Of a stretch of 57,791 bases of DNA, positions 3,789 through 52,509 are shown one piece after another; the first letter of the stretch is position 1, and each line of letters opens with the position of its first letter. The notes under the pieces were generated by a model. That model saw only the letters and a list, made by a program, of their open reading frames with translations. It searched no databases and was not told the origin of the DNA. Made by a program: the position numbers and the translations under genes. The stretch is from NCBI GenBank assembly GCA_013316135.1, contig WSNH01000001.1, positions 1 through 57,791 of the forward strand. The letters are read 5' to 3'. The stretch is from Clostridia bacterium (GTDB lineage: Bacteria > Bacillota > Clostridia > Christensenellales > UBA3700).

Positions 3789-5003
3789 ATGAAAAAAATA
3801 TCAGGCGGCGTTTGCGCCGCTAAGGGTTTTAAAGCCAATGGCATACACTGTGGAATAAGGAAGAATAAGGACAAACTTGATTTGGCTCTTATCACTTGCG
3901 ACGTACCTTGCGCGGCAGCAGGCGTATATACAAAAAACAAAGTCAAAGGCGCTCCGCTCACAGTGACGAAAAACAATATTTCCGACGGTGTGGCGCAGGC
4001 GGTTATTTGCAATAGCGGCAACGCAAATACTTGCAATGCCGACGGTATAGAAAAGGCGCAGACGATGTGCGATTTAGTACAAAAACACACCGGTATCAAA
4101 GCAAGCGACGTTGTGGTCGCGTCTACTGGCGTGATAGGCGAGACGCTCAATATGCAACCAATCAGCGACGGTATGCAACGCTTGACGGACGGTTTGTCTG
4201 AGTATGGCAGCGCAAATGCCGCTAAAGCCATAATGACGACAGACAGAGTAATGAAGGAGATAGCATACTCATTTGAACTTGACGGCAAAGAGTGTCATAT
4301 AGGCGGAATAGCAAAGGGTAGCGGTATGATTAATCCTAATATGGCCACGCTTCTTTGTTTTGTGACGACCGACGTAAATATATCCAGCGAAATGCTTTCT
4401 TTGGCGCTGGGCAAAGTAGTCAAAGACACATTGAATATGGTGTGCATTGACGGAGATACTTCTACCAACGATATGCTTAGCATACTCTCATCTTGTTTAG
4501 CAGGAAATGAAAAGATAACAGATAAAGGCAAGGAATTCAATGAATTTTGCAAGTGTCTCAAAAAGATTTTGGAGTATCTTGCAAAAGAAATTGCCAAGGA
4601 CGGAGAGGGCGCGACCAAACTTTTGGAATGCAAAGTAGTCAAGGCAAAGAATATTAAGTCAGCCAAGGCAATTGCGCAATCAGTCATATCCTCTTCGTTG
4701 GTAAAAGCGGCAATGTTTGCGTCAGACGCAAACTGGGGTAGAATACTCTGCGCAATCGGCTATGCTGACGAGAAATTTGACGTAAGCAAAATCGACGTTG
4801 ACCTCAAGTCAAGAGTCGGTATGATAAGAGTTTGCGAAAACGGCGCAGGCGTACCTTTTGACGAAAGCGTGGCTACTAAGATACTTTCCGAAGACGAAAT
4901 ATGTATCGTTGTCACTTGCAACTGCGGAGGGGCTAAGGCCACTGCGTGGGGCTGCGATTTGACTTATGAATATGTGAGGATAAATGCCGATTATCGCACC
5001 TAA
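3789..5003 (+). CDS. argJ: glutamate N-acetyltransferase / N-acetylglutamate synthase ArgJ
   Basis: Transfers acetyl from N-acetylornithine to glutamate, recycling the acetyl group. It is 404 aa. The self-processing site is visible as NPNMATLLCF near residue 190, where the Thr becomes the N-terminal nucleophile of the beta chain. No argA was seen, so a bifunctional enzyme is likely but not provable from sequence. Confidence 0.95.
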   Translation: MKKISGGVCAAKGFKANGIHCGIRKNKDKLDLALITCDVPCAAAGVYTKNKVKGAPLTVTKNNISDGVAQAVICNSGNANTCNADGIEKAQTMCDLVQKHTGIKASDVVVASTGVIGETLNMQPISDGMQRLTDGLSEYGSANAAKAIMTTDRVMKEIAYSFELDGKECHIGGIAKGSGMINPNMATLLCFVTTDVNISSEMLSLALGKVVKDTLNMVCIDGDTSTNDMLSILSSCLAGNEKITDKGKEFNEFCKCLKKILEYLAKEIAKDGEGATKLLECKVVKAKNIKSAKAIAQSVISSSLVKAAMFASDANWGRILCAIGYADEKFDVSKIDVDLKSRVGMIRVCENGAGVPFDESVATKILSEDEICIVVTCNCGGAKATAWGCDLTYEYVRINADYRT

Positions 5004-25370: not shown

Positions 25371-26579
25371 CTAATTACCGTCGCTTTGAAAGAATTTTTG
25401 GATTTTGTTGATTGCGTCTGCCTGTGCTTCCAAAGTTGCGTGAGTGTAGACGTCCAAAGTGGTGGACATTTTGCGGTGCCCAAGCCTTTGCTGAATGACT
25501 TTCGGGTTAACACCACACGCCAACAGTATTGTTGCGTGAGTATGTCTGAATGTGTGATATGAAACGCTTTTACCAAGGATTGAACGTATCTTTTCCAAAG
25601 CGTGGTTCAAACTTCTCATACTCATCCATTCGCCGTACTTGTTTCTACAGACGAAGTTCATTGTGTCGCCGCCATCTACAATGTAAGAGTTGCTGTCGTA
25701 AGAGTATGTTGGGTAATAGTCGCCCATATTATTACGTAAGAATGTCTGTCTGTCATACTCTTTTTTAAGAGCTTCCAACATCTCATCATCGAGCGGGATA
25801 GTTCTCACGGAGCCAAACTTCGGCGCGCTCATCTTTCTTTTTGGAGTACCTTTGTTAGCGAGCTGATTGACCTGTATATTTATTGTAACATTTTTTTGTA
25901 AAAAGTCAACCGAATCCCATGTCAGTCCCATAGTTTCAGAGATACGCAGACCGCAGTGCCAACCCAACATAAGCGGAATATAGTATGTGGTGCCAAATGG
26001 ATACTTTTCAACGATTTTTTTGAAGTCTTCTTGTGTAATAGTTGTTCTTTCTTTTGTCATAGGTATTGTTGAAGATAATGGTGGCGTAACGTGTACGGCT
26101 GGATCAACCTTAATAAACCCAAAGGGGAACACCGCGCATTGAAATGCAACGTGGATTGTCGCAAGAACACCGGTGATGTACGACTTTGACTTATCTCTAA
26201 ATCCGTTGATGAACGTCTGCAAAACAGACGGTGTTATAGAAGACAGGCGATACTTGCCAAGCGCAGGCTTAATATTTCGTTCAACGATATATGTGCGCCC
26301 TTGTAAGGTTGTATCCTTCCAGTGGTTCCTGCCATAGTTTTCAAGCCAGAAGTCAAGATAATCGCTTAAACTGACGGTAGAGGGAGTGAAGTGCTCGCCG
26401 CTTGCATAGTATTCAGCAAGAGCTTTTGTGCCCGCCTCAAGTGCTTCCTTCTTAGTTCGGAAGCCAGACTTGGTGGCGCTTTGCCGCTTGCCAGCAACAC
26501 TTGCAATTTCAAAACGGTACTCCCAATTGGGTCGTCGTCCAGTGTTCTTGTTTCTGTCTCTTACGTTAATTTTCGCCAT
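25371..26579 (-). CDS. int: tyrosine integrase
   Basis: 402 aa. N-terminal arm-binding and SAM-like domains are followed by a catalytic domain with Arg in WHCGLRISETMGL, HTFRHTHA, LGHRKMSTTLDVYTHAT (nucleophile Tyr). It is the last gene of the long minus-strand array and lies next to tmcAL, so it marks the left boundary of the integrated element. The attachment site is probably in 25278-25370 but no partner copy is in the window. Confidence 0.95.
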   Translation of the reverse strand: MAKINVRDRNKNTGRRPNWEYRFEIASVAGKRQSATKSGFRTKKEALEAGTKALAEYYASGEHFTPSTVSLSDYLDFWLENYGRNHWKDTTLQGRTYIVERNIKPALGKYRLSSITPSVLQTFINGFRDKSKSYITGVLATIHVAFQCAVFPFGFIKVDPAVHVTPPLSSTIPMTKERTTITQEDFKKIVEKYPFGTTYYIPLMLGWHCGLRISETMGLTWDSVDFLQKNVTINIQVNQLANKGTPKRKMSAPKFGSVRTIPLDDEMLEALKKEYDRQTFLRNNMGDYYPTYSYDSNSYIVDGGDTMNFVCRNKYGEWMSMRSLNHALEKIRSILGKSVSYHTFRHTHATILLACGVNPKVIQQRLGHRKMSTTLDVYTHATLEAQADAINKIQKFFQSDGN

Positions 26580-30534: not shown

Positions 30535-31668
30535 TTATAAATTGTGTTTCAGTAGGAATTGATTGCTGATACACTTAAAGCTGATGGTGTTGTCGTGGTC
30601 TCTTATTACAACACCTTCCCTAAGTGTATCGCACAAAGTAGATTTGCCGTCTGCGTAGGCAATCATTTCATCGACGGTAGGAAGCAGCTTAAAGTCCGCG
30701 TTGAGTATCGGAACCCATTTAATTCCGAAGTCGTGCATCACATCTGTGGCAATTGAGCTGTCCATTTTGACGCCGTCGATTACAAGGTTGAAGGAATAGA
30801 AGTCAATTCCCTTAAGACCATATTTGTTCTTCTGGATGCCCTCGCCAATGGTTTCGCCCTGTAATACAACAGTCGTTGCGCCGTACTTCTCCATAATTTT
30901 CAAGAGAACATTGCGAATGTCGTACTTTTGAGCGATTTGATGATAAACGTTCTCGTCGTAGAAACACTTCTGGGTGATGTCGGCTTGGCGGACGTTCCTT
31001 GAACACACCGCGAAGTCATATTTTCTTTTCTTTTCTTTTCTCAACCCGAAGCTCGTAGAGGTGCCGTCAATTTTTTCAGTGACGACCATTGACTTGTCCT
31101 TGTATGTATCGAGGACGAAAGGCATATTTTGCAATCTCGTTTCGTCCGTTTTGACTATCCAGTCAGGGAAGTTCTTGGGTTTCTTTTTGGGTGCAAGAAG
31201 TTTGTAAACGGTCTTTCTGAACCATTTGAACTTCATAAACCACAAGAAGACTTTGTTCTTGAACAGTTTCTTATGGCGCTGCTTAATTGCCGCCGCGGGG
31301 TCTTTAACCTGTTGCTTCGGAACTTCGTCCTCAATCTGCTTAATCTTAAGTACATCGGTTACGTCATCGCCGAGCACATAAGCTTTCCCGTCGTGCAAGA
31401 TTGAGAGAGGGAAGATGATGCCTTGCGAAATTACACCGCGCATCTTCATTGTCTTAATCTTATAGTGCTTCGATTCAAGGAATGCGAAGTCAGGGTTGTC
31501 GGCAGGCATAATGCTGTCAATCTCAACGTAGATTGCAAGATCGCCAACCTTAAATTCGTTTTTCTTCACAATACATTGCCAGCCAAGTATGCCAGCGAGT
31601 TCAATTTTGTCGGCTCCCTCAATAGGACGGAGCCACGCAATTTGTTCAATGTGAGCAAGCTTTCTCAT
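30535..31668 (-). CDS. RNA ligase, DRB0094/Rnl5-type
   Basis: ATP-dependent RNA ligase. It is 377 aa. An N-terminal OB-like domain (IEGADKIELAGILGWQCIVK ... GDLAIYVEIDSIMP) is typical of the Deinococcus Rnl family. The nucleotidyl lysine is in EKIDGTS (K about 199), with later QGETIGEG and EGVVIRD (motifs III-IV). A basic, hydrophobic insertion at about residues 130-165 is unusual. The family seals 3'-OH/5'-phosphate nicks, and the matching end-healing activity (Pnk-HD) is encoded 8 kb away. Confidence 0.88.
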   Translation of the reverse strand: MRKLAHIEQIAWLRPIEGADKIELAGILGWQCIVKKNEFKVGDLAIYVEIDSIMPADNPDFAFLESKHYKIKTMKMRGVISQGIIFPLSILHDGKAYVLGDDVTDVLKIKQIEDEVPKQQVKDPAAAIKQRHKKLFKNKVFLWFMKFKWFRKTVYKLLAPKKKPKNFPDWIVKTDETRLQNMPFVLDTYKDKSMVVTEKIDGTSTSFGLRKEKKRKYDFAVCSRNVRQADITQKCFYDENVYHQIAQKYDIRNVLLKIMEKYGATTVVLQGETIGEGIQKNKYGLKGIDFYSFNLVIDGVKMDSSIATDVMHDFGIKWVPILNADFKLLPTVDEMIAYADGKSTLCDTLREGVVIRDHDNTISFKCISNQFLLKHNL

Positions 31669-31680
31669 TTTTTACCTCTT

Positions 31681-31857
31681 TTAGTCCCAAATTTCTTTAT
31701 CTGTTTGTCGTTGTATCCTTCTGCGTGCCAACTTACGCATTGGCTTCTTAAAGCTTTTAGCGCGCAATGTGCCAGCAAAAATATGATACTTTCGTGTTCC
31801 TCTGTCCATATCGGCAGCGCTGTACTCTTTAGATACGGTTAAATTAACCTTGTCCAT
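31681..31857 (-). CDS. small basic protein
   Basis: 58 aa, start MDKVNLTVSKEY, strongly basic C-terminal half (SFKKPMRKLARRRIQRQ). It fits between the RNA ligase and gp88 genes without overlap. It may bind nucleic acid; no family recognised. Confidence 0.6.
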   Translation of the reverse strand: MDKVNLTVSKEYSAADMDRGTRKYHIFAGTLRAKSFKKPMRKLARRRIQRQTDKEIWD

Positions 31858-31871
31858 AAATGCTTTCCTTT

Positions 31872-32510
31872 TTAATGCTTATTGAATACAACAGATTCGC
31901 CCGCTTTAATGTTCCAGCACTGCAAGCAATTTGTGCAGTCACCAGAACACTCAGCCGCCGTTTCTGGTATTGAGTTGTTCTCACTATCCTTAAACCGAAC
32001 ATATGCCACAGGGAATGAGTAGGGGTTGTCAATTTTGAAGTCGTCGCCCCAAGCGCTGAACACGATGTGAAGGTTCTTCGGAATAGTGCCGCCGTTATGT
32101 ATAAACTCGTTTACGATTTCAAATTTCTTCGTAAAGGCAAGGAAGGAAGTGAGGGGAAGTTCTTCGGCGACTTTAACCACGCCCTCAAAATACGCTCTAT
32201 CCACGAAGTCGCCAGCAGCGTGCCAACGGAAGTATGAGTATGAAACCATTCCGTTGTTAATTGCGTGCTTGATTTCCGCAAAGTAGGTCTCTGGATCGTG
32301 GAAGTATATCTTGTAGTTGTTCGCGAGATTGTCCTTGACATTCTGAAAACGGAAACGTCCTTTGGTTGCGTAGCAGTCTTTCGCGCAAGGGCAATTTGGT
32401 CGGCAGGTTGTTATCGGCGGTAAGTTAACCGACGGTATCAACCCAAGCTTACTGTTTGTTGTAGATATCTTAACCGGCATATAAATCTCCTTTATTGGCT
32501 CATTGTCCAA
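31872..32510 (-). CDS. phage gp88-like protein
   Basis: 212 aa with the cysteine pattern of the 'gene product 88' family: TCRPNCPCAKDCYATKGRF (about residues 39-57), FRWHAAGDF, LAFTKKF, and a C-terminal CSGDCTNCLQCW. Common in phages and mobile elements, function unknown; probably metal-binding. It confirms the mobile character of this region. Confidence 0.8.
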   Translation of the reverse strand: MDNEPIKEIYMPVKISTTNSKLGLIPSVNLPPITTCRPNCPCAKDCYATKGRFRFQNVKDNLANNYKIYFHDPETYFAEIKHAINNGMVSYSYFRWHAAGDFVDRAYFEGVVKVAEELPLTSFLAFTKKFEIVNEFIHNGGTIPKNLHIVFSAWGDDFKIDNPYSFPVAYVRFKDSENNSIPETAAECSGDCTNCLQCWNIKAGESVVFNKH

Positions 32511-32557
32511 AGAGAAGATTTATATTAAGTTAAGTCAGTCTCTTTGGACTGATTGGA

Positions 32558-33322
32558 TTACTCCAATGTTGCGGGCATATTTCTCTTATGCTCCGATGCT
32601 TGGTGCATTTGCTCTATCTTAAGAGCAGTTTCATAATCGGTGTTTGACATACCACCGCTTATATATCCGTCGAGCGTAGCGTATGTAAACCCGAAACTGT
32701 CTTCATCGGTCTTACCGCACAGCCCGTCGGATGGTGTTTTGGTAACGTACTTTTTATTTAATCCGAACTCATCGGCAAGCAGGTCGCCGAGAGCCATAAC
32801 CTCTGTGCAGGTTAAGTGAGCGATAGGGTTGAAGTCGTAGGCGCTGTCGCCCCACTTGGTTGTCCAACCTATATAAGCTTCACTTGCATTACCCGTTCCG
32901 ATAACCCTGTATCCGAGCGTTTGTGCAACCGCATACAAAACCGTCATGCGAATACGGGGAGGGATATTTGTCTTTGCTTTGTCGGTAACTTTGGGGCAGT
33001 TCGCAACGAAGTCTCTTCCGATAGGTGTTTCTTCGATGCGGTTCTCTATAACGTGCAGAAGAGAGTTGTAGACGGTTTCAATGTTGACAATGCGGTGCTC
33101 AATACCGAGCGTCTTAACAATGTCAAGAGCATCGTCAATATCCTTTTGTGTGCCGTTCGGCATTAAGACACCGAACACGTTGTTGCCCCAAACTTTCTTT
33201 GCAAGCATCGCAACGACCGTGCTATCTTTACCGCCGCTTATTCCGAGTACAATGCCGCGGCAGCGTGTGGCTTCTTTGTATTGTTCAAGCCAGTTCAAAA
33301 TTTCCTTTAATTTAGTTTCCAT
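32558..33322 (-). CDS. nadE: ammonia-dependent NAD synthetase
   Basis: Amidates nicotinate adenine dinucleotide to NAD. It is 254 aa, the NH3-dependent short form. PP-loop GISGGKDSTVVA (about residues 26-37), GTGNASEAYIGWTTKWGDSA (about 147-166), and KTPSDGLCGKTDED near the C-terminus. Its start lies 16 nt inside the macro gene. Last gene of the five-gene NAD operon. Confidence 0.94.
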   Translation of the reverse strand: METKLKEILNWLEQYKEATRCRGIVLGISGGKDSTVVAMLAKKVWGNNVFGVLMPNGTQKDIDDALDIVKTLGIEHRIVNIETVYNSLLHVIENRIEETPIGRDFVANCPKVTDKAKTNIPPRIRMTVLYAVAQTLGYRVIGTGNASEAYIGWTTKWGDSAYDFNPIAHLTCTEVMALGDLLADEFGLNKKYVTKTPSDGLCGKTDEDSFGFTYATLDGYISGGMSNTDYETALKIEQMHQASEHKRNMPATLE

Positions 33323-33783
33323 ATTTCAACCTTCCATTCATCACCGGCAAATTCTTCCTCGATGATTTTCTTAACTATATTCCAATCGCCGCCACCAAGA
33401 CCGCAACCGATGTGGTCAGGGAAGCCAATCGTAAAGTCTTTATTAACAAGCTCTGTTGGTATGAGCATTTTAAGCTGTTGGCAACTCAACCTAAACATCT
33501 CATAGTTTGTGTGATTGATGCCACGGGGCAAGTAATGGAATTGTGCGAACATATTGGCAATGTAACGAGTATTGTCCTCGGAAACTGCACATATTTGAGC
33601 AACGCCCATTAAATATTCCAGCTTATACTGATTGCATACTTGCTTATATTTTTCAAAGACTTGAGGGTAGGTAGAGCGTATTTGCTTCGCTATACCCGAA
33701 CCCATAACGCCTTGGCAGTTCACTTGGTGACAGATAATATTGCAATTGCTTTTCAGTAAGTCGCCATTTTTATAAGTAACCAT
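33307..33783 (-). CDS. macro-domain protein
   Basis: 158 aa, single macro domain: GDLLKSNCNIICHQVNCQG, MGSGIAKQI, and C-terminal GIGCGLGGGDW. Such stand-alone phage-type macro domains bind ADP-ribose; some remove ADP-ribose from DNA or protein, and Poa1p relatives hydrolyse ADP-ribose 1''-phosphate, a by-product of tRNA splicing. Placement inside an NAD-recycling operon supports an ADP-ribose substrate. It shares one base with NAMPT and overlaps nadE. Confidence 0.9.
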   Translation of the reverse strand: MVTYKNGDLLKSNCNIICHQVNCQGVMGSGIAKQIRSTYPQVFEKYKQVCNQYKLEYLMGVAQICAVSEDNTRYIANMFAQFHYLPRGINHTNYEMFRLSCQQLKMLIPTELVNKDFTIGFPDHIGCGLGGGDWNIVKKIIEEEFAGDEWKVEIWKLN

Positions 33784-35276
33784 TAAAAGTTATCTCCGTA
33801 AAGTCTTTTTCTGATGTCGGCAAGGCTGTACTCGAGTACCATCTTGCCATCGATAAAGACCGCCTTTAAGGTATTGTCGGCACGATAGGTTGCTTTGAAG
33901 TCGTGTTCGTCTTCACTCGTTAACGCGCCGTCAGCCCCCGTTAAAACAAGCACACAGCCCTTGTGGGACTTTTTGAAGGAAGCCTCTTTGGGATTTTTGA
34001 AAATCATAATGGGCTTGCCGTCTTTGTCTTCAGCGTAGGTCGCCTTAATAGCGATGCCGAACGTATCTCTGGTGTATGGATTGAATCTCGGAATAGCCGC
34101 GTGTTCCTCATAGGACTCAAGGCACTGCATAGAGAAGCTACCAACACCAAGTGCAACGTTGCTTGCTGCAAAACCGTTGTTAACCAAAATGGTGTAAATC
34201 GATTCCGCTCTTTGAGGTGTGATGCTATCGCCGTATATAGCCTTAATATGGGGGTTCAGAACCTTGTAACCCTTTGAGTTGACTGTTCCACCGAACTGCT
34301 CCCAAAGATGGAATACAGTCTTTGTGACGACTTCTACGGGGTCGCCAGAGTCGCCGCGCACCAAGAGGCATCCGTTGTGTTCGAGGATTTCCTTCTTGCA
34401 CATTGGTAAGATGTTGTCCACCAAGTTCCAGTAATCGTAGCTGTCGCTTACCATACTAAAAGACGTGTTGGGATACGTTTCTGTGAGCAAACGCTTAATC
34501 ATTGTGATTTCGTCGCTGTCAACTGCAAAGTTACTGCACATTACGGAGTGTTCGGTTGACACCGAGCCAAAGCCGACTTCCTCTTTTTCGCAGTCGCAGT
34601 TGTAATATTTTTCCATATAATCTACCGCCGGAACCGTTGCTGTGTTCACGAAGGATAACAGCCAGCCTGCGGAAGATTTGTATGCGCTGCGCTTCGACTC
34701 TTGACCTCTCATAGAGAAGTCACCAAGAGCTTTTCTACGAGGGATATTGTCATCGCAACTCATATCGTAGAAGTGGTCTACGATTTTTCTGTACTTGTAG
34801 CCGACGTTTGCGGAAATCATAGCGTGCCACATTTCGCAGCTTATCACAGATTCCAAGGCATTTGTGAGCCAAGCAAAGTCGGGGTGGGTGTTACTTATCT
34901 CGAACATCGGAACGCCGATAGGAACGAGCGTTCCCTCTGCAAGAGCTTTAATCTCGATAGGAAGATAGCCCAAGTCGTGCAACTCTGCAACGCGCTCGAT
35001 GCCGTACAACCCCTCGCCGAGGGTGTTGTCGAGAAGATGTTTATATTCGCGTACAACGTCTTCCTTAGGACGGGAGAAGAAGAACTCGTTGAAGTCTTCG
35101 ATGAGATATTCTTTGATGAATGACTGCAAACCAAACATAATAAGGTGCTTATCATTTTTCAGCCTGCTCATTCTCGGCACAAAGTAGCTTACGACTTTCG
35201 TTATGCCTTTGGGGTATTGGTTCCAGTGAACTTGCTTATAGAAGTCACTCTCTAAAAGTGGGTTAATTCTGTACAT
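33783..35276 (-). CDS. nadV: nicotinamide phosphoribosyltransferase
   Basis: Makes NMN from nicotinamide and PRPP. It is 497 aa, full length. Compared with human NAMPT: GDFSMRGQESKRSAYKSSAG corresponds to the DFGYRG region, SVSTEHSVM holds the catalytic His, and LLVRGDSGDP corresponds to RPDSGNP. PRPP synthetase overlaps upstream by 14 nt and would supply its co-substrate. Confidence 0.93.
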   Translation of the reverse strand: MYRINPLLESDFYKQVHWNQYPKGITKVVSYFVPRMSRLKNDKHLIMFGLQSFIKEYLIEDFNEFFFSRPKEDVVREYKHLLDNTLGEGLYGIERVAELHDLGYLPIEIKALAEGTLVPIGVPMFEISNTHPDFAWLTNALESVISCEMWHAMISANVGYKYRKIVDHFYDMSCDDNIPRRKALGDFSMRGQESKRSAYKSSAGWLLSFVNTATVPAVDYMEKYYNCDCEKEEVGFGSVSTEHSVMCSNFAVDSDEITMIKRLLTETYPNTSFSMVSDSYDYWNLVDNILPMCKKEILEHNGCLLVRGDSGDPVEVVTKTVFHLWEQFGGTVNSKGYKVLNPHIKAIYGDSITPQRAESIYTILVNNGFAASNVALGVGSFSMQCLESYEEHAAIPRFNPYTRDTFGIAIKATYAEDKDGKPIMIFKNPKEASFKKSHKGCVLVLTGADGALTSEDEHDFKATYRADNTLKAVFIDGKMVLEYSLADIRKRLYGDNF

Positions 35277-43503: not shown

Positions 43504-44652
43504 TTAACCGGCACGGAGAACATCTTTGATAGTTTGTTCAACGTCCTTATTAAATTTTGCACTGTACGACTTAATAATCGTCTCAATTGTCGCGCCTTCT
43601 ACCATCTTATAGTAAGAGATAAGCCCTTGAAGGTGCTGTGTATCTTCGAGGCTCCATACATTGCCGTTCTTCTCGTCGTTCATAAACGAGAACAGCATTG
43701 CCTTGAAAACCTTTTTCTTGGAATGACCGATTGTGATTTGGTTATCGCTGTTGAGCATCACGCCCAAGTTCCAGTTTCGACCAGCGGAACTTCCGTATCT
43801 CGTCTTTGTCATGTTGAGAGAGAAGGGGGCGTGGAACTTGTTAGCAACTATGTCTACGATGGTGTCTTGAACCTCGCGCCAATTAAACGCCAAGTCGCTC
43901 GAAAGGATGATATCGTCCGCATATCTTGTGTAGACGAGGTGTGGAGTCATCTCTCTCGCGGTCTTTGCAATGTAGTGGTCTATGGGTATCATAAACAAGT
44001 TGGTAAGGGTAGGGCTAATGGGGGTGCCCTGCGGCAAACCGTTGTTGAGATAGCATATCGACAATGCTTTTACCAGAGCTTCTCTTCCGTTAGGTCTTGC
44101 GACGATTTCGTTGAAGGGGAAGATGGTTTCAAGCTGCGAGATGATAAATTCGGGCTTCGAGCTTCCAAAGAAGTCGTGGAAGTCGAGCTTCAAGAACCAG
44201 CGCGACTTATTGCGCTGATGTCTTTTAACTGCATCGATAGTGCTTCTGCCTTTTACATAGGCAAATGCCGCGGTATGATAGCTTGCATAAAGTTTCTTCT
44301 CAAAAAGATATTTGAGTTCCCTCAGTGCGTTCATTAAATCGTCAAGCGGTGCATTTATCTGACGAAGACCGCCGCTACGCTTGGGGATTTTGAAACTCCT
44401 ATACAGAGTGGACTTGTCTTCGGTGTTGATGAGATTGATGTACTTTTCGTTAAATCTTACAAGAGCCGCAATCATTTCGTCAAAATCCGTATCGTCGAGG
44501 AGTTTTTGCGGTGTGTTGTTTCTGAACACGGTCTTAGTATCGTGAGTGTCTTCCATCTGGCGCTCAAACACGGACTCGTTCATTCCGTTCAAAATATCGT
44601 CAAAAGAAATCTGATGGAACTTTTGACTTACGGGTACTGTTATGTACGGCAT
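43504..44652 (-). CDS. reverse transcriptase, retron / group-II-intron-like
   Basis: 382 aa. RT motifs in order: FKIPKRSGGLRQINAP, LKLDFHDFFGS, NNGLPQGTPISPTLTNLFM, and catalytic YTRYADDIILSS (about residues 240-251). NLGVMLNSDNQITIGHSKKK matches the segment after motif 5. There is no DGR-type IGNxxSQ motif and no maturase or endonuclease domain, which favours a retron-like or unassigned bacterial RT. It is preceded by a 300-nt structured leader and followed by RNase HI. Confidence 0.88.
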   Translation of the reverse strand: MPYITVPVSQKFHQISFDDILNGMNESVFERQMEDTHDTKTVFRNNTPQKLLDDTDFDEMIAALVRFNEKYINLINTEDKSTLYRSFKIPKRSGGLRQINAPLDDLMNALRELKYLFEKKLYASYHTAAFAYVKGRSTIDAVKRHQRNKSRWFLKLDFHDFFGSSKPEFIISQLETIFPFNEIVARPNGREALVKALSICYLNNGLPQGTPISPTLTNLFMIPIDHYIAKTAREMTPHLVYTRYADDIILSSDLAFNWREVQDTIVDIVANKFHAPFSLNMTKTRYGSSAGRNWNLGVMLNSDNQITIGHSKKKVFKAMLFSFMNDEKNGNVWSLEDTQHLQGLISYYKMVEGATIETIIKSYSAKFNKDVEQTIKDVLRAG

Positions 44653-44953: not shown

Positions 44954-45634
44954 TTAGTTTCGGTATGCGTCTACTTCAAAGTTGAACGCATCAATTGTTA
45001 CAATCTTTTTCAACTCGTTCTTGCGAACGAAGTTCATAAAGTTCGATACTCCATACGAGCAAACAATTCTTACCGTAGGAGCAACGCCCATTTCAACGTG
45101 GCACGCCGTCATAGGAGTGGACTCCTGAGCTTCTTCGTGAGAGAACTCCATACTTTTGAGAAAGTTCTCAACGCTTTTCGGATCGTGCCAATCCGCAGCG
45201 TAGTGTTGTGCATCTTCAAGCCTTGTTCTAAAATCAAACATTGCTTTGATGGACATATTTGCTTTGTTCTTCGTCGCAATCGTGCGGCGCAGGTCAATGT
45301 TGTCAACGCAAAGGAAGACATATCCGTCAAGCCTTGTCTTTTCAGTCCAGCCGTCGCTGCAAATTTTTATATCGTTCTTCGCTTCGGGGTTGATAGCGAG
45401 TAACATATCTCTTACGGCTTCCGTCTTTAAGCGTTTGATGTCAGCGTTCACAAACATCTGGTTTGCAAGATTGTGAGCCGATACAACGTCGAAATCGTAG
45501 AGGGATATTTTCGTGAGCCCAAGGCGAATGAGCAACTCCGCGACCGTCGAACCAACGGAGCCACACCCAATGATGTGGCAACGTTTCGTGACGTCCAACG
45601 GGTTGAAGTAATCCTGAGATTTTACAAGGTTCAT
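44954..45634 (-). CDS. ThiF/E1-like adenylating protein (PRTRC-type)
   Basis: 226 aa from the Met at 45634, 1 nt after the JAMM stop. Rossmann core: CHIIGCGSVGSTVAELLIRL, LYDFDVVSAHNLANQ, and FLCVDNIDLRR. It would adenylate the C-terminus of a ubiquitin-like protein. No CxxC zinc pairs; a candidate thioester Cys is in PMTACHVEMG. Gene order Ubl, E2-like, JAMM, E1 matches the ThiF-containing PRTRC cassette. Confidence 0.85.
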   Translation of the reverse strand: MNLVKSQDYFNPLDVTKRCHIIGCGSVGSTVAELLIRLGLTKISLYDFDVVSAHNLANQMFVNADIKRLKTEAVRDMLLAINPEAKNDIKICSDGWTEKTRLDGYVFLCVDNIDLRRTIATKNKANMSIKAMFDFRTRLEDAQHYAADWHDPKSVENFLKSMEFSHEEAQESTPMTACHVEMGVAPTVRIVCSYGVSNFMNFVRKNELKKIVTIDAFNFEVDAYRN

Positions 45635-45635
45635 A

Positions 45636-46544
45636 TTAGTAATGTCCTCCGTATCTGCCGTAGATGCCGGCGTAGTAGTCATCATCGTCGGGGTCGTCAT
45701 CATTAAGCAAACTTCCTTGACGCGCCTCAGCTTTTGCGCCGCGTTTCGGCGAGGTGGACTTGGGTGTCGTCGTAGTTTCGCTATGGCTGTTACCACCATA
45801 GCTGCCACCGCCGTAGCTGTTACCACCGTAGTTTCCGCCGCTGTATCCGTAAGATTCCGTTACAACTTTTTTGGCTTCATCAAGGAAGTCGGTAAGCCAA
45901 TCGCAATCTTCGACTACAATTTTGATTTCGTCGGCGGTTGTAGACTTCGAGTAAAGCGCATTATTTTGCAGGTCGTAGATTTCACCACTTATGTCGCCGC
46001 GCTTGTTGAAGATAAGGAAGATGTAGAAGAGGTCTGACGTAGCGGAAGGGGTACCGAAATTATTGAGGATGTTGTGACGATACGTCATATCAACTCCGGA
46101 CGGCGTAACTCCCATATTTACGTGAGAGTGACCGTGGAAGCGAAGCACATTGAACGTATCGTTATCAAGAGCGTCGAGCCATTTCTCGTACTCCGTCTGG
46201 TCGGAGATGACCGTCGCACCGGTAACTTTGTGAGGGAAGATGAGTACGTCCTTAATGTAGAACGCATCTGCTGCGGTTCTCTCAACAACTCCGTGCCATT
46301 CGACTTCGGTGGAGTAGGTGTGAACCAGCGCAAAAATCTTCATATATGCTTGCGCCGAGAATGTTATTGTTGCTTTACGGTCGTCTTTAACTTCTTTTAA
46401 TTTGAAGTTAAGTGTGACGCCGTCGGCTTGGTCGTTCTGGAATTTTCTTTTCTTTAAGTTGCGGCTTTCTACCAGCAACTGTGCTTGTGCCGAGCGCAAA
46501 AACTCGGCGATTTCCGTTTCGGTTGCAAAAATTTTCTTAGCCAT
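45636..46544 (-). CDS. JAB/JAMM metalloprotease (deubiquitinase-like, PRTRC-A type)
   Basis: 302 aa from the Met at 46544. A perfect JAMM motif HSHVNMGVTPSGVD (HxH, seven residues, S, two residues, D) lies near residue 150 with an upstream glutamate in EVEWHGVVE. The C-terminal 70 residues are a low-complexity Gly/Tyr/Ser then acidic tail. It likely trims or removes the Ubl. The start overlaps the E2-like stop by 8 nt. Confidence 0.87.
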   Translation of the reverse strand: MAKKIFATETEIAEFLRSAQAQLLVESRNLKKRKFQNDQADGVTLNFKLKEVKDDRKATITFSAQAYMKIFALVHTYSTEVEWHGVVERTAADAFYIKDVLIFPHKVTGATVISDQTEYEKWLDALDNDTFNVLRFHGHSHVNMGVTPSGVDMTYRHNILNNFGTPSATSDLFYIFLIFNKRGDISGEIYDLQNNALYSKSTTADEIKIVVEDCDWLTDFLDEAKKVVTESYGYSGGNYGGNSYGGGSYGGNSHSETTTTPKSTSPKRGAKAEARQGSLLNDDDPDDDDYYAGIYGRYGGHY

Positions 46545-47919
46545 TCGTAGTACCCTCATTCTCGTTATTCTCTCTGATGTACGCAAGGAATTCGCGGAGC
46601 GTCATTTCTTTGCCATTGTCTGCAAGTATACATCTACACGAACTGTCGAGATAGCTCTGCACGTCTTCAACGAATTCGCGAATGACAGTTGCGTCTCCAA
46701 AGTTGATATTTTTGACCGCCGCGATTGTTTGCTCGATAGCCATATCCCAGTTACCCTGTTTCAAGTAGTTGTTAATATACGTTTCGTTGCCACCGAGGCA
46801 AGCATGGTGATACAGATGCGGGTGGGGCATATGAGTTCCAGAGAATTGCCCCGACGTAGAACCTCTGCGCGCTATAATGCTCGCAAGGTTTACCAAACGG
46901 AACACACCCTCAACTCGAAACACGCCCTTCCCATCAGCAAACACGGCGTGGAAGATATCTTTGATGTCTTTTGGCGCGCGACCTATCGAGGAAGACGAGT
47001 TTTTATACAGCCTCATAAATTCGTCGGCGTCAAAATATTCAATTGTTTCAGTAACGCAATAATCCATCACGTTGCCGTCGCTATTTTGCTGAGTGTTAAT
47101 AATGCTTATTTGCTTGTGCATCATAAAGAATTTATATACGCTATCATCGGTGCTGTCGCCCTGAGCTTCAAGAGCCGTTAAGTTAACGCTGCTCTGTTCG
47201 AGCTTGTTGAGCAGACGAGCAATTTCTTCCTGATATTGTGCTATGTTTCTGTGGTAATCTTCACACGCACTTTTCAGTGTAAGAATTTGCTTTTTGCGGT
47301 ATCCGTCATTCCAACCGATAAGAATTTTCTTGAACCTCGCGGCTTGGAAGTCGTAATTTGCGCAAAGAGTATTGATGATGTTGTTGAATGCGCTGGCATC
47401 CTTTTTGCTTATCGCCCTGAACAAAGCTGTTTCGTCGTCGCTCATTTCCTCGGCGAAGTACCAAGGCAATACTCTGAACATCGACGAACAAAGCATATCT
47501 ATCCAGCGTTCGGTCGGCTGTCTTACAAAGATAACCGTACTTTTTAACTCTGTGTTCGCATAAACGCGAGTTTCCGATGCTGCCGTAAGAAACGGGGCGA
47601 CAGGATAGGGAGGGGTATCCAATGCAACCCAACCATCTTCATTAACGGTAGGCAATTGTGCTCCGCGCCGCGCGGATACAATATAGAGTTCAATGCCGTT
47701 CTCTTTGGCTTGCTGTGCATAATAATTCCCGTTGTTGTATTCGGAGAACTGATTGGTGTAAACCTTAATCGGTCTTATCGTTTCAATTTCGCCCTGATGG
47801 TGTTTCAGGGCGATGAAACGTAATGTTGCTCCGAGGGTAACGCTACCCAGAGGGGAAGAATCGTTGCCAAAGAAGACGTTGGCATTTGAACTCGTAATGA
47901 TAGTGTTTACGCAGTCCAT
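46537..47919 (-). CDS. E2-like / PRTRC-B-like protein
   Basis: 460 aa. Conserved-looking block HMPHPHLYHHACLGG (about residues 362-376) resembles the HP...CLG active-site region of bacterial E2-like proteins, with the Cys as possible thioester acceptor. The centre (about 190-270) is a coiled coil. Position between the Ubl and JAMM genes supports an E2 or PRTRC-B role; assignment rests on context plus this motif. Confidence 0.65.
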   Translation of the reverse strand: MDCVNTIITSSNANVFFGNDSSPLGSVTLGATLRFIALKHHQGEIETIRPIKVYTNQFSEYNNGNYYAQQAKENGIELYIVSARRGAQLPTVNEDGWVALDTPPYPVAPFLTAASETRVYANTELKSTVIFVRQPTERWIDMLCSSMFRVLPWYFAEEMSDDETALFRAISKKDASAFNNIINTLCANYDFQAARFKKILIGWNDGYRKKQILTLKSACEDYHRNIAQYQEEIARLLNKLEQSSVNLTALEAQGDSTDDSVYKFFMMHKQISIINTQQNSDGNVMDYCVTETIEYFDADEFMRLYKNSSSSIGRAPKDIKDIFHAVFADGKGVFRVEGVFRLVNLASIIARRGSTSGQFSGTHMPHPHLYHHACLGGNETYINNYLKQGNWDMAIEQTIAAVKNINFGDATVIREFVEDVQSYLDSSCRCILADNGKEMTLREFLAYIRENNENEGTTNG

Positions 47920-49131: not shown

Positions 49132-50688
49132 TTAACCCTTAACAGCTTGTTCTACGGGAGAATAACGTTCGCTGTTAAGTTGTTCGAGTAAGCACTCAAA
49201 CGGGTCGGTGGAATTGCTGAGAACCATCTTAACGATGGCGGGACTGAAGCCACTTACCAAAGCAACGCCGAGGTCGTTCTCTTTTACGGGGATGGTTCCC
49301 GTGCGGCTGCAAATATTCCAGAACACCAAGCGGGGGAGCTTGTAGCCGTGATCTGCATAACGTTTTGCGATAACCGCGAAAAGCTTTTTATCAATTCCGC
49401 GACCACCATAGCCAGTGTGACCAAAGTGGGAAGTCGTTGCGCAACTATCAAACTCCATATCGGAAAGGATAAGAATGTTTGCGGGAAGCTCGGACTGCTT
49501 CATGTGGGCATTGATCGCCGTCGTCAATATCAAGTCAAACACGGCTTCGATATTGGTATTCGCTACCTCGTTGTGAGTAAGTGCAATGCCGATTTTGTCG
49601 CGCAAAGACTTGCCGCTTGCAAGATTAACGAGTTGCGGGTGTTCGCTGAACGTGATGTACTTGTCCTTGAACTGTCCCGAGCTTCTTTCGGCAAAGTAGA
49701 TTGCCAAAGCATTCGCAACGTCAAGACAGCTAACACCCGTTCCGCCGACTACAGAAGTCATACTGCCCGAGCCGTCGGCTACGCAAATCGTGTTGCCGCT
49801 TTCTTTAACGTAATTGGGGAGTGCTTTCCACATTTCCTCGAGTGCCGTATCGCGATTTTTCAGTGACCAGCCCGATTTGTATTTGTGAACGATATCGTGA
49901 GGGAAGAGGACGCCGGCATTGATTTTTGTCTCGCCTTTTTCAAGTTTGCCGAGATATTCTCTGCGGCGCTTCTCATCGTTACGAAGGAATGCGTTGTTGT
50001 AGATGAGGTTTGCCCTCGAAGGAACAGCAGAGTAGTCGATGCTCGACCATTCTCGGTTACTCATCTTAGCCTCGACAACATTCGTGTAAGAGCGAAGTGC
50101 GGTGAGCATTTTACGGTACTGTCTTTCGGTCATACCGAGTTTGCTGATGAGAATCTTTGCAAGGCGGCGAGTTTCGCTGGACGAAGCATTTGCCGACGGC
50201 ATCCACTTTGCGCAGAGCGAAATCGCGTTCTTGCGTCCCATTTGGTACATATCGTTATTCAGCTGCTCTTTGACGATTGCAACTGCGTTGTCGCAAAGGC
50301 TCGTATCGAGAAGAACAACGAGGTTGTCCCAGCGGGTGTATTCGGGAATGAGCTTGAGAAGTTTGACCGCTACGTCCGCTTCGTTTGTGGCAAGGTATTC
50401 CATACCGATACGGAACAGTCTGCGCTCTCCGAGTCCGCCGCGAACATCGCCGGCGAAGAAGAGCCACTTGATTACGAGAAGTTTATTCTCGAAGAACGCC
50501 TTTGTAAATCTCTGCTTGATGCGCTCCGGCGTTTCATTGCGCAGGGAAGATACCGCGAAGTTGAGGTCGAGCAATTCTTTGCCCGAGGTACGATATCCAA
50601 CCGCACCGTTTTCCGTAACGGACTCGTTGAACTCTTCGCCGATAGTGCGCCTGAGATTTTCCATAAAGTTGTTCATAGTTACCTCCAA
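49132..50688 (-). CDS. DUF2828 protein (TROVE-like N-terminus, vWA C-terminus)
   Basis: 518 aa. The N-terminal helical repeat region (about residues 10-280) resembles TROVE/Ro60-type scaffolds (FFAGDVRGGLGERRLFRIGM). The C-terminal vWA domain (about 300-500) has the MIDAS motif VADGSGSM. Relatives occur in phages and plasmids. Ro60 binds misfolded and Y RNAs, so location directly after the interrupted-tRNA array is suggestive. GGAGG fixes the start, and an ACAGCAA element occupies its 5' leader. Confidence 0.82.
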   Translation of the reverse strand: MEVTMNNFMENLRRTIGEEFNESVTENGAVGYRTSGKELLDLNFAVSSLRNETPERIKQRFTKAFFENKLLVIKWLFFAGDVRGGLGERRLFRIGMEYLATNEADVAVKLLKLIPEYTRWDNLVVLLDTSLCDNAVAIVKEQLNNDMYQMGRKNAISLCAKWMPSANASSSETRRLAKILISKLGMTERQYRKMLTALRSYTNVVEAKMSNREWSSIDYSAVPSRANLIYNNAFLRNDEKRRREYLGKLEKGETKINAGVLFPHDIVHKYKSGWSLKNRDTALEEMWKALPNYVKESGNTICVADGSGSMTSVVGGTGVSCLDVANALAIYFAERSSGQFKDKYITFSEHPQLVNLASGKSLRDKIGIALTHNEVANTNIEAVFDLILTTAINAHMKQSELPANILILSDMEFDSCATTSHFGHTGYGGRGIDKKLFAVIAKRYADHGYKLPRLVFWNICSRTGTIPVKENDLGVALVSGFSPAIVKMVLSNSTDPFECLLEQLNSERYSPVEQAVKG

Positions 50689-50715
50689 TGAATTAAAATA
50701 TTAAATCTTAACTCC

Positions 50716-50775
50716 AAGACGGGATTCAAAAAGAGATTTCAAGTCCTTGTTTTGTAACGTTGCTGTTACCGTCTT
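50716..50775 (-). ncRNA. ACAGCAA element 6, in the DUF2828 leader
   Basis: A 7-bp helix (50769-50775 with 50716-50722, AAGACGG/CCGTCTT) is followed on its 5' strand by TAACAGCAACGTTACA. Same layout as elements 4 and 5. Confidence 0.55.
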
Positions 50776-50796
50776 TGAGTTGATGGTACGAAAAAA

Positions 50797-50914
50797 TGGG
50801 AGCGGTGGGGCTCGAACCCACGACCACGAGCTTAACAGGCTATTCGATAAAATTGCTGTAAGAGATTTGGCAAACCTCTCGATTTACGCGCTCTACCAAC
50901 TGAGCTACGCTCCC
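50797..50914 (-). tRNA. tRNA-Asn (GTT) interrupted by a 45-nt intron-like insertion
   Basis: Exon 1 is 50914-50887 (28 nt), insertion 50886-50842 (45 nt), exon 2 50841-50798 (44 nt), discriminator A at 50797; CCA is not encoded. Joining the exons gives a perfect cloverleaf: acceptor GGGAGCG/CGCTCCC, D GCTC/GAGC, anticodon stem CGAGC/GCTCG, loop CTGTTAA, T stem GTGGG/CCCAC. The junction falls between positions 28 and 29; shifting it one base either way breaks a pair. The insertion has an 8-bp hairpin followed by TACAGCAA. A T-run follows the gene. The insertion is too short to be a group I or II intron. Confidence 0.85.
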
Positions 50915-50920
50915 AAATGA

Positions 50921-51037
50921 TGGAGACGGCAGGACTCGAACCTGCAACCTTCGGCACCCTATGCAAAAGAAAAGTTGCTGTATGAGCCTAACAAGACTCG
51001 TCTTTAACGACGCTCTATCCAGTTGAGCTACATCTCC
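50921..51037 (-). tRNA. tRNA interrupted by a 43-nt intron-like insertion (anticodon reads AGG, Pro)
   Basis: Exon 1 51037-51008 (30 nt), insertion 51007-50965 (43 nt), exon 2 50964-50922, discriminator A at 50921; no CCA. Joined: acceptor GGAGATG/CGTCTCC (one wobble), D GCTC/GAGC, anticodon stem TCGGC/GCCGA, T stem GCAGG/CCTGC. The joined loop is ATAGGGT, giving AGG (Pro), with an unusual A32-U38. The junction is between positions 29 and 30. The insertion has a GAGTC/GGCTC hairpin, then ATACAGCAA. AAAGA near its 5' end can pair with TCTTT near its 3' end. Confidence 0.78.
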
Positions 51038-51053: not shown

Positions 51054-51150
51054 GGGAAGAATGTGAGTTGTTGAGGAAATATACTTTCTTCTACTGTATT
51101 AAATTGCTGTGTGCGAACCCTACCCATTTCGCTTAAAACACAATCTTCCC
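51054..51150 (-). ncRNA. ACAGCAA element 3 inside a larger stem
   Basis: An outer 12-bp helix with one mismatch (51139-51150 with 51054-51065) encloses a hairpin GCGAA/TTCGC (51113-51132), directly followed by ACACAGCAATTTAATA. This is the same hairpin-then-motif layout as the two tRNA insertions. The flanks do not form a recognisable tRNA. Confidence 0.5.
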
Positions 51151-51154
51151 TTGC

Positions 51155-51335
51155 AAGGCACAAAACATATAGAAATCTTTTACCCGAAAAATTTGATCTA
51201 TGTAATTGCTGTAAGTGCCTTATATAGTTTTTTATCGGCGACAACTATCAACGCCGGCAGCCCTCCAATATTTTAAGCCCAGGGGTTGCCTAAACAGGCT
51301 CTCATCAGCCGACGCCACTGATGAGGAATGTAATA
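51155..51335 (-). ncRNA. ACAGCAA element 4 and upstream multi-hairpin RNA
   Basis: A 7-bp helix AAGGCAC/GTGCCTT (51215-51221 with 51155-51161) carries TTACAGCAATTACATA next to its 5' strand. Upstream on the minus strand lie hairpins CTCATCAG/CTGATGAG (51301-51325), GCCT/AGGC and CGGCG/CGCCG, all without a reading frame. The CTGATGAG resembles hammerhead ribozyme sequence, but the paired GAAA core is missing. Confidence 0.5.
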
Positions 51336-51336
51336 C

Positions 51337-51429
51337 AAGACGCTTTCGTTTGTTACGGGAATCGAACCCGCTTGAATTCTGTTACAGGAGAATTTGTTTA
51401 CCTTTTATGTAAGTTGCTGTAAGCGTCTT
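51337..51429 (-). ncRNA. ACAGCAA element 5 with a tRNA 3'-half-like sequence
   Basis: A 7-bp helix AAGACGC/GCGTCTT (51423-51429 with 51337-51343) encloses TTACAGCAACTTACATA, then an arm ATTCT/AGAAT with an 8-nt loop CCTGTAAC and a T-arm GCGGGTTCGATTCCCGT. No matching 5' tRNA half is next to it. It could be a split, permuted or decayed tRNA. Confidence 0.5.
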
Positions 51430-51440
51430 TCTTGTTGTCG

Positions 51441-51603: not shown

Positions 51604-52509
51604 TTAACTTTTCGGTGCGGCGGAGTAGGTGGCTTTATGCTCGGCGAGCCAGCGTTGTACAAACCAAAGCTGACCACAGCCACCGCCAATATCATCTTGT
51701 CCAGCAGGGTCAAAGATACGAGTGTTGTATCCCTTGTTTATAAAGCTTTGCTCAACAGAACGAATAAAGTCTAAGTCTTTGTAGCCGGCGTCTTTCATCG
51801 TTTCATCACTACTGCAAACGACAGAAAAGGTGAAATTAAACACAAGCGGGCTAAACAAAGCCTGTAACCTTACGATGTCTGCACTGGTGGAATTGACAGC
51901 ACCTTCGACGCAATAGTTGAGGTAGGGATGTCTACCCGTTTTATGCCACCACATAATGCCATAATCACGTATTTCTTCGAGCGTTAATTTATTCTTGTAA
52001 GGAATAAGCTTGTTGCGATCCTCGTCATTGCTGCGATGTATGCTGAACTGCAACCCTATTTTGTCGATTTTTTTGGAAAGCTCAAGGAACCCCATTAAAG
52101 CTCGAGGATTGTTAGGTGCAATAGTAGATATGAGTAATTGTGCGGTGGGGTACAACACATTCAAACGCTCTATCGCGGTCGCTACCGCATCCCAATTCAA
52201 CAAGGGTTCACCCATCGACATAAACATGATTTGAAATTTGCGAACTTCTTGCGTGTTTATGTTTTGGTCTTCGATGACCGTTTTGACTTGCGAAACTATT
52301 TCATCGCTCGTCAGGTTTCTCACAAACCGCTTACCGGTTCCGCAAAATGAGCAGCCAACGGGGCAACCGCTTTGTGTGGAACAGCAAATCACCGTCCTTT
52401 CGGCGAAGGAATTGTATCGATAGAGTACAGATTCAGCGACAAAATCATTGCCACTAAATACATACTTAAATACGTTACCCTCGGAACTATCGAACCTTTT
52501 GAATTCCAT
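51604..52509 (-). CDS. RlmN-like radical SAM protein
   Basis: 301 aa. Radical SAM cluster motif SGCPVGCSFCGTGKRFVRNL (CxxxCxxC, about residues 48-60) and MSMGEPLLNWD match RlmN/Cfr-type RNA methyltransferases. QFSIHRSNDEDRNKLIPYKNK and the C-terminal GGGCGQL are also typical. It is shorter than RlmN (about 350 aa), with a reduced N-terminal domain. RlmN methylates C2 of adenosine in 23S rRNA and at tRNA position 37; being first in line before the tRNA array makes a tRNA substrate attractive but unproven. Confidence 0.83.
   Translation of the reverse strand: MEFKRFDSSEGNVFKYVFSGNDFVAESVLYRYNSFAERTVICCSTQSGCPVGCSFCGTGKRFVRNLTSDEIVSQVKTVIEDQNINTQEVRKFQIMFMSMGEPLLNWDAVATAIERLNVLYPTAQLLISTIAPNNPRALMGFLELSKKIDKIGLQFSIHRSNDEDRNKLIPYKNKLTLEEIRDYGIMWWHKTGRHPYLNYCVEGAVNSTSADIVRLQALFSPLVFNFTFSVVCSSDETMKDAGYKDLDFIRSVEQSFINKGYNTRIFDPAGQDDIGGGCGQLWFVQRWLAEHKATYSAAPKS

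What the first reader, a model, noticed from the sequence alone, without database searches (positions are those of the whole stretch)
50797..51037. Two tRNA genes with 45- and 43-nt intron-like insertions in the anticodon stem
Removing 50886-50842 from one gene and 51007-50965 from the other yields cloverleaves in which every stem pairs and lengths are normal (72 and 73 nt before the discriminator). The unspliced forms cannot make the anticodon arm. The insertions share a layout: 5' TAAA, hairpin, (T)ACAGCAA, then a T-rich 3' part. They sit at positions 28/29 and 29/30. Known bacterial and phage tRNA introns are mostly group I or II and hundreds of nt long; these are far shorter, so a protein-dependent or novel RNA mechanism would be needed.
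Basis: partly seen in the sequence, partly recalled or inferred. Interest (0 to 1): 0.95.

Follow-up and report, generated by a model that had tools for sequence, protein, structure and literature searches.

The report
Viral tRNAs carrying Ro-protein docking arms
The two 'tRNA genes with introns' are most likely hybrids of a tRNA and a Y RNA (the small RNA that binds the ring protein Ro60), encoded by a bacterial virus next to its own Ro-like gene; the extra 43-45 letters look like the Ro docking arm and not like a spliced-out intron.

Summary
Two tRNA genes carry 43- and 45-nt inserts in the 5' strand of the anticodon stem, and the inserts share a hairpin plus ACAGCAA. The intron reading is not supported. 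ACAGCAA recurs in four neighbouring small RNAs, directly upstream of a prophage gene (DUF2828/DUF7788) whose predicted fold matches Ro60/TROVE best (Z about 15). In 85 related loci, nearly all phage contigs, ACAGCAA is the most enriched 7-mer upstream of this gene: 103 on the coding strand against 1 on the other. Most sites form stand-alone Y-RNA-like stems, AAGRCNC-nn-ACAGCAA...GNGYCTTG. I found 61 different tRNA chimeras in 27 loci. The insert hairpin covaries at all seven pairs and keeps the end signature of the stand-alone stem, joined into a loop. Other phages hold the circular permutation of the same object: the Y stem open, the acceptor closed. That is the topology of bacterial YrlA in Rfam. 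Best reading: a Ro-binding arm on a tRNA-like effector, left in place. Protein binding, absence of splicing, and function (decoy or tether) are inferred. Splicing into working tRNAs is not excluded.

The parts
50921..51037 (-). tRNA/Y RNA chimera 1 (117 nt; anticodon loop ATAGGGT, Pro-like AGG, if the arm is looped out)
   Evidence: Rfam tRNA 49.6 bits; chimera model R1 90.6 bits, built including it
50965..51007 (-). insert of chimera 1 (43 nt, between positions 29 and 30): hairpin GAGTCT-TGTT-AGGCTC (50999-50984), AT, ACAGCAA (50981-50975), T-rich part
50797..50914 (-). tRNA/Y RNA chimera 2 (118 nt; anticodon loop CTGTTAA, Asn GTT)
   Evidence: Rfam tRNA 48.1 bits; chimera model R1 109.6 bits, built including it
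50842..50886 (-). insert of chimera 2 (45 nt, between positions 28 and 29): 9-pair hairpin GAGAGGTTT-GCC-AAATCTCTT (50880-50860), ACAGCAA (50859-50853), T-rich part
51336..51430 (-). Y-like RNA a: stem AAGACGCTT/AAGCGTCTTG closing ACAGCAA (51420-51414) and D-, anticodon- and T-arm-like elements (tRNA-like body nested in the Y stem)
   Evidence: stem found; arms read from the sequence
51154..51222 (-). Y-like RNA b: TAAGGCAC-tt-ACAGCAA...GTGCCTTG
51054..51150 (-). probable Y-like RNA c: ends GGGAAGATTGTG/CACATTCTTCCC, ACAGCAA at 51110-51104 after a hairpin (least certain)
   Evidence: read from the sequence
50711..50780 (-). Y-like RNA f: ACTCaAAGACGG-ta-ACAGCAA...CCGTCTTgGAGT, immediately before the Ro-like gene
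49132..50676 (-). Ro60-like ring protein (DUF2828 + DUF7788; PHROG 850 'RNA-binding protein')
   Evidence: Pfam 4.9e-33 and 2.1e-42, PHROG 1.6e-139, model pLDDT 84, best PDB matches TROVE/Ro60
51604..52509 (-). RlmN/Cfr-like radical SAM RNA methyltransferase gene upstream of the array (membership in the system unproven)
   Evidence: TIGR00048 3.2e-31, below the curated cut-off
30535..31668 (-). RNA ligase of the same prophage (possible tRNA repair; relevant to the splicing rival)
   Evidence: PHROG 968 2.2e-72; Pfam PF09414 and PHA02142 OB fold

Best explanation
The array makes a set of phage Y RNAs for the prophage's own Ro60-like ring protein. The protein recognises a short stem followed by unpaired ACAGCAA. 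In four RNAs this stem joins the molecule's 5' and 3' ends, as in ordinary Y RNAs. In the two 'tRNAs' the same stem is closed by a tiny loop and planted as an extra arm on the 5' side of the anticodon stem, so the rest of the molecule is a tRNA-like effector with free acceptor ends. The arm is not spliced out: the whole 117-118-nt RNA is the working form, a Ro particle displaying a tRNA. Most likely it engages tRNA-handling factors, as a decoy for tRNA-cleaving host defences or a tether for processing or decay enzymes, as proposed for the tRNA-like domain of bacterial YrlA. Shown here: motif and stem conservation, linkage to the Ro-like gene, the Ro60 fold of a predicted model, covariation of the insert hairpin, and topological identity with permuted tRNA-like Y RNAs. 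Inferred: that the protein binds the ACAGCAA stem, that no splicing occurs, and the decoy or tether role.
For: ACAGCAA upstream of the Ro-like gene: 103 (+) against 1 (-) in 500 nt, in 50 of 85 loci, top enriched 7-mer. Stem plus ACAGCAA: 72% of 267 sites against 31% of shuffles at score 6 or more, 34% against 4% at 8 or more. 64 stand-alone RNAs align with invariant ACAGCAA and a nearly invariant G after the 3' arm, 58 of 64. In the chimeras the same ends are fused into a loop: CTTG or TTTG in 16 of 23, the G in 20 of 23. All seven insert-hairpin pairs show compensatory changes. Circular permutants exist in named phages; the Enterococcus phage EFGrKN one matches the whole YrlA model (45.9 bits, below its cut-off of 69). 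Ro60/TROVE structures head the fold search, Z 12.6-15.9 against 9.9 for the next fold. Listeria phage CKA15, P100-like, strongly transcribes three unannotated regions upstream of its Ro-like gene (PMC12282133); the P100 record has three ACAGCAA stems there.
Against: No binding or RNA-size data exist for these RNAs. 35 of 61 chimeras retain a complete 5-pair anticodon stem, 7-nt loop and U33 after virtual excision, against 7 (at most 15) in shuffles; a pure tRNA mimic would not obviously need this. An RNA ligase sits in the window and, over the cut-off, in 9 of 16 chimera-bearing phage records. Without protein, the outer anticodon pairs are not predicted to form. About 40% of loci had no exact ACAGCAA within 500 nt upstream of the gene.
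Confidence: 0.78

Rival explanations
1. The inserts are true short introns: the Ro-like particle holds the precursor while an endonuclease cuts at the base of the arm and the phage RNA ligase (or host RtcB) joins the anticodon stem, giving functional Asn, Lys, Thr or Pro tRNAs. The permuted forms would be processed like permuted tRNA genes.
For: Virtual excision gives 5-pair stem, 7-nt loop and U33 far above shuffles. A conserved 5' junction CG|TAA in the 23 aligned chimeras: C in 23, G in 22, T in 20. RNA ligase in the prophage and in 9 of 16 chimera-bearing phage records.
Against: Some chimeras have the insert in the anticodon loop and no U33. Permuted forms have degenerate anticodon arms: 8 of 13 candidates complete, 3 of those with U33. 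Chimera anticodons repeat those of ordinary tRNAs in L020, L062, L071 and L086. CCA is encoded in 3 of 26 chimeras but 75 of 194 ordinary tRNAs, and both ordinary tRNAs of the window carry it. Five of 16 records, all possibly fragments, show no RNA_ligase match. The insert has a sufficient other explanation.
Confidence: 0.12
2. Decaying tRNA genes: a Y-RNA module jumped into tRNA genes by recombination, and the chimeras are non-functional leftovers.
For: tRNA arrays in phages are recombination-prone; chimeras vary in insert position.
Against: 20 of 23 pairs in the chimera alignment show compensatory changes, including acceptor, T arm and insert hairpin; invariant T loop and ACAGCAA core; chimeras in 27 loci.
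Confidence: 0.04
3. The inserted stem is a processing or packaging signal unrelated to the Ro-like protein (for example an RNase site, or a binding site for another protein).
For: Conserved AAG/CTTG ends could be cleavage signals; some loci with the gene lack the motif nearby.
Against: Tight, strand-specific linkage to the DUF2828 gene across many phage groups and the Y-RNA-like anatomy.
Confidence: 0.06

Closest known systems
YrlA (Rfam RF02553), tRNA-like bacterial Y RNA bound by Rsr/Ro60
   Same: A Ro-type stem joined to a tRNA-like body with T, acceptor and D arms; linked to a Ro60-type gene. Phage relatives of the window RNAs align with the whole YrlA model.
   Different: YrlA is open at the Ro stem and closed at the acceptor; the window RNAs are the reverse and keep an anticodon hairpin. 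The YrlA consensus has no ACAGCAA. All phage matches are below its cut-off of 69 bits.
Ro60 / Rsr (TROVE domain) ring proteins, e.g. PDB 1YVR, 2NVO, 9L5Y (Thermus phage phiLo)
   Same: Predicted fold: helical-repeat part plus vWA domain, Z 14-16.
   Different: Pfam assigns DUF2828/DUF7788 and not TROVE; 12-16% identity in the structural alignments.
Putative Y RNAs of Listeria phage CKA15 (PMC12282133)
   Same: Abundant unannotated transcripts upstream of a DUF2828-type gene, near tRNA genes.
   Different: Suggested there without a motif or structure; tRNA chimeras not described in the passages read.
Group I/II tRNA introns and archaeal or eukaryotic protein-spliced tRNA introns
   Same: Insert within a tRNA whose removal restores a cloverleaf.
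   Different: 43-45 nt, no Rfam intron match, 5' side of the anticodon stem, and a module that also exists alone.

Membership tests
Y RNA / YrlA class | Encoded beside a Ro60-type gene | tested here: met
   Array ends about 35 nt before the gene; Ro60 fold; linkage in many phages
Y RNA / YrlA class | Conserved stem plus unpaired motif for Ro binding | tested here: met
   Stem + ACAGCAA; actual binding not testable here
Y RNA / YrlA class | Binds the Ro-type protein | not testable with these tools
   needs pull-down or gel shift
Y RNA / YrlA class | tRNA-like domain with T, acceptor and D arms | tested here: met
YrlA (RF02553) | Reaches the Rfam gathering score of 69 bits | tested here: not met
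   window 32.6 bits across the boundary of the two chimeras; best phage relative 45.9
YrlA (RF02553) | RNA ends at the Ro stem, acceptor closed by a loop | tested here: not met
   window chimeras are open at the acceptor; phage permutants meet it
Ro60 / TROVE protein | Ro60 fold | tested here: met
   AlphaFold model, Foldseek E 2.6e-8, Z 15.9
Ro60 / TROVE protein | Pfam TROVE (PF05731) match | tested here: not met
   no TROVE match in the own genome; DUF2828/DUF7788 instead
Group I / II self-splicing intron | Conserved catalytic core | tested here: not met
   43-45 nt; no intron family in Rfam even at permissive threshold
Bulge-helix-bulge tRNA intron | Bulge-helix-bulge at the junctions, cut by a tRNA splicing endonuclease | not tested
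   motif not searched for formally; endonuclease not searched
tRNA | Cloverleaf with canonical anticodon arm | tested here: inconclusive
   complete only after virtual excision or as a three-way junction

The most novel reading that the evidence does not exclude
The Ro-binding arm is a removable guard: the phage transcribes tRNAs locked in a Ro particle (unfit for translation and possibly immune to anticodon nucleases), then excises the arm and seals the anticodon stem with its RNA ligase to release working tRNAs on demand. This would be a protein-dependent tRNA splicing pathway in bacteria and phages, built from Y RNA parts.
Probability: 0.12. Interest if true: 0.95.

Novelty: new variant of a known kind. 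Interest (0 to 1): 0.7.

Why it matters
It identifies a likely RNA partner, with a simple signature (AAGRCNC-nn-ACAGCAA...GNGYCTTG), for a Ro60-like protein found in 681 sequenced phage records whose role is unknown, including phages of Listeria, Salmonella, E. coli, Mycobacterium and Vibrio. It shows tRNA mimicry by Y RNAs in more than one topology, including one with free acceptor ends and a complete anticodon hairpin, which makes charging, nuclease-decoy and splicing hypotheses directly testable. Annotation tools miss most such genes or give them wrong tRNA identities.

Tried and rejected
Self-splicing intron: no Rfam intron family in the array even at a permissive threshold. ARAGORN with introns is too permissive: it offered dozens of spurious introns across phage tRNA arrays, so I used explicit arm parsing, shuffles and a covariance model. 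A first scan of GTDB genomes with the Ro-like protein found nothing; the alignment-based scan of viral contigs was productive. The chimera model R1 also hits ordinary tRNAs with about 45-51 bits, so only matches well above that (about 80 bits and more) were taken as chimeras. Canonical TROVE loci of the same phylum gave only sparse ACAGCAA matches, two with a short possible stem, so generality beyond DUF2828 is open. Sequence search of the PDB with the protein profile found no relative. Rfam's YrlA match in the window spans the 3' half of one chimera and the 5' half of the next; I treat it as a read-through of tandem tRNAs and not as a separate RNA.

Full report
WHAT WAS CLAIMED AND WHAT IS THERE. 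Both are present. Rfam's tRNA model matches 51037-50921 and 50914-50797 on the minus strand (49.6 and 48.1 bits) and places a long insert in the anticodon arm of each. Removing 51007-50965 leaves TCGGC-ATAGGGT-GCCGA; removing 50886-50842 leaves CGAGC-CTGTTAA-GCTCG. The inserts consist of an A-rich start, a hairpin (6 and 9 pairs), ACAGCAA and a T-rich end.

THE MOTIF IS NOT SPECIFIC TO THE tRNAs. ACAGCAA occurs six times on the minus strand between 51420 and 50760, where 0.05 is expected (P about 3e-11). Four occurrences lie in other small RNA-like segments between a radical SAM gene and the gene at 49132-50676. Three of these four have a stem whose 5' arm ends just before ACAGCAA and whose 3' arm lies 37-68 nt downstream, such as AAGACGG-ta-ACAGCAA...CCGTCTT. 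One, at about 51430-51336, encloses D-, anticodon- and T-arm-like elements.

THE NEIGHBOUR IS A RO60-LIKE PROTEIN. The gene product matches Pfam DUF2828 and DUF7788 and PHROG 850 'RNA-binding protein' (1.6e-139). An AlphaFold model from 28 window and viral sequences (pLDDT 84, pTM 0.81) finds Ro60/TROVE structures as its nine best Foldseek matches, including Ro60 of Thermus phage phiLo. The second aligner gives Z 12.6-15.9 for Ro60 structures over 361-412 residues, against 9.9 for the next fold, a lone vWA domain. 681 phage records hold a relative; several annotate it 'Ro-like RNA binding protein'. The window looks like host DNA plus a prophage: a phage integrase at 25371-26579 and, on the minus strand to its right, an RNA ligase, NAMPT and NAD synthase. 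Prophage boundaries were not determined.

LINKAGE IN OTHER PHAGES. An alignment-based scan of viral contigs gave 80 loci. In 85 loci (these plus earlier ones), ACAGCAA occurs 103 times on the gene's strand and once on the other within 500 nt upstream, in 50 loci, and is the most enriched 7-mer; it also clusters downstream, 51 against 4. Of 267 sites, 72% have a stem of score 6 or more against 31% in mononucleotide-shuffled context, and 34% against 4% at 8 or more. A 64-sequence alignment has ACAGCAA invariant (partly by selection) with consensus AAAGACGC-nn-ACAGCAA...GNGTCTTG. The same RNAs occur in Listeria P100, Mycobacterium Moostard, Escherichia Alf5, Staphylococcus CF1, Campylobacter F358 and Enterococcus EFGrKN. 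In the P100-like Listeria phage CKA15, three unannotated regions within 2 kb upstream of the Ro-like gene are very highly transcribed, and its authors suggested Y RNAs (PMC12282133). The P100 record has exactly three ACAGCAA stems there, although I could not match coordinates between the two phages.

MANY tRNA CHIMERAS. Searching for tRNA bodies with the motif between D and T arms gave 61 non-identical chimeras in 27 loci. RNAalifold on 23 of them recovers the acceptor, D arm, T arm and insert hairpin unaided; 20 of 23 pairs, and all seven hairpin pairs, have compensatory changes. The insert is therefore under selection. Chimeras also occur in a second bacterial genome of the class (99.5 and 81.6 bits) and in Cronobacter phage LPCS28 (80.9 and 58.4 bits).

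THE INSERT IS THE Y STEM, CLOSED. In stand-alone RNAs the 5' end begins AAG and the 3' end is CTTG, the final G present in 58 of 64. In chimeras the hairpin reads ...CTTG-nn-AAG..., with CTTG or TTTG in 16 of 23 and the G in 20 of 23. So the two ends of a Y stem are fused by a tiny loop, and the inner side of the Y RNA is opened into the tRNA.

THE PERMUTED COUNTERPART. The reverse opening also exists. A parser found 13 candidates for tRNAs nested in circularly permuted order inside Y stems, of which I judge about ten real. The clearest is in Enterococcus phage EFGrKN (L100, about 3130-3250): AAAGAATCTA-ACAGCGA-TTTTTATT-GC-CTATGGA-GC-CGT-GGGTC-T arm-CGGGAGG-ATGATT-CCTCCTG-TA-D arm-A-ACG-TATAAAATA-GATTCTTG. 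Its anticodon arm is split ACG...GC-loop-GC-CGT, exactly as in the L062/L064/L070 chimeras. Rfam's YrlA model has this same order (Ro stem, T arm, acceptor hairpin, D arm, Ro stem) and aligns end to end with the EFGrKN RNA at 45.9 bits, below its cut-off of 69. A review describes YrlA as an end-to-end stem that binds Rsr plus D, T and acceptor arms modified by DusA and TruB (PMC8394870). The window RNAs are thus YrlA-like objects opened at the acceptor and closed at the Ro stem.

WHY NOT INTRONS, AND HOW SURE. In permuted forms the 'intron' is the RNA's own two ends. Several chimeras carry the arm in the anticodon loop and have no U33. CCA is encoded in 3 of 26 chimeras and 75 of 194 ordinary tRNAs; in the window the two ordinary tRNAs have it and the chimeras do not. 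Chimera anticodons repeat ordinary ones in four phages; most loci are too short to judge. On the other side, 35 of 61 chimeras give a complete stem, 7-nt loop and U33 on virtual excision, against 7 (at most 15) in shuffles, and RNA ligase genes are common in these phages. RtcB was found in 1 of 16. I leave splicing at 0.12.

LIKELY FUNCTION. Inference: the Ro-like protein holds RNAs whose outer part looks like tRNA, to occupy or recruit tRNA-handling enzymes. In Salmonella, YrlA's tRNA-like domain was suggested as a competitive inhibitor of an anticodon nuclease (PMC7790460). A phage facing such defences would gain from tRNA decoys with intact anticodon loops; the frequent RNA ligases fit that conflict. 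A tether to a nuclease, as for D. radiodurans Rsr and PNPase, is the alternative.

NOVELTY. That bacteria and phages encode Y RNAs with tRNA-like domains is known; Chen et al. 2014 is cited for mycobacteriophages in PMC12282133, and the original paper is not held here. I found no description of the ACAGCAA family with DUF2828 or of the acceptor-open chimeras in the held literature, which lacks most subscription papers. Hence 'new variant of a known kind'.

LIMITS. Loci are related by descent, counts are not independent, shuffles are simple, and parsers used exact motifs. The 28 chimeras tabulated were chosen for clean parses; use the 61-chimera figures for frequencies.

Noticed in passing
43504-44652 (-): Retron St85-like reverse transcriptase (190 bits, below the curated cut-off of 235) in the prophage, with no retron RNA looked for.
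   Followed up: no
44954-47919 (-): ThiF/E1-like gene with weak PRTRC ThiF similarity next to proteins without Pfam match; may be a PRTRC-like or ubiquitin-like cassette.
   Followed up: no
30535-35276 (-): RNA ligase, NAD synthase and nicotinamide phosphoribosyltransferase genes close together: RNA repair and NAD salvage genes of the kind phages use against host defences.
   Followed up: partly
L018 4702-4815, L021 4807-4925, L025 4727 onward, L015 4647-4761: Gly-like chimeras with the arm in the anticodon loop keep NCC anticodon letters but have no U33; three of the four have discriminator U. Possibly kept for synthetase recognition and not for decoding.
   Followed up: partly
L017 4632-4770, L018 about 4830-4945, L010 about 4420-4515: A third topology: a tRNA in normal order nested inside a Y stem that extends or replaces the acceptor stem.
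   Followed up: partly
L102 5368-5610 (Cronobacter phage LPCS28): Chimeras in a cultured T4-like phage use the variant TTCAGCA in place of ACAGCAA.
   Followed up: partly
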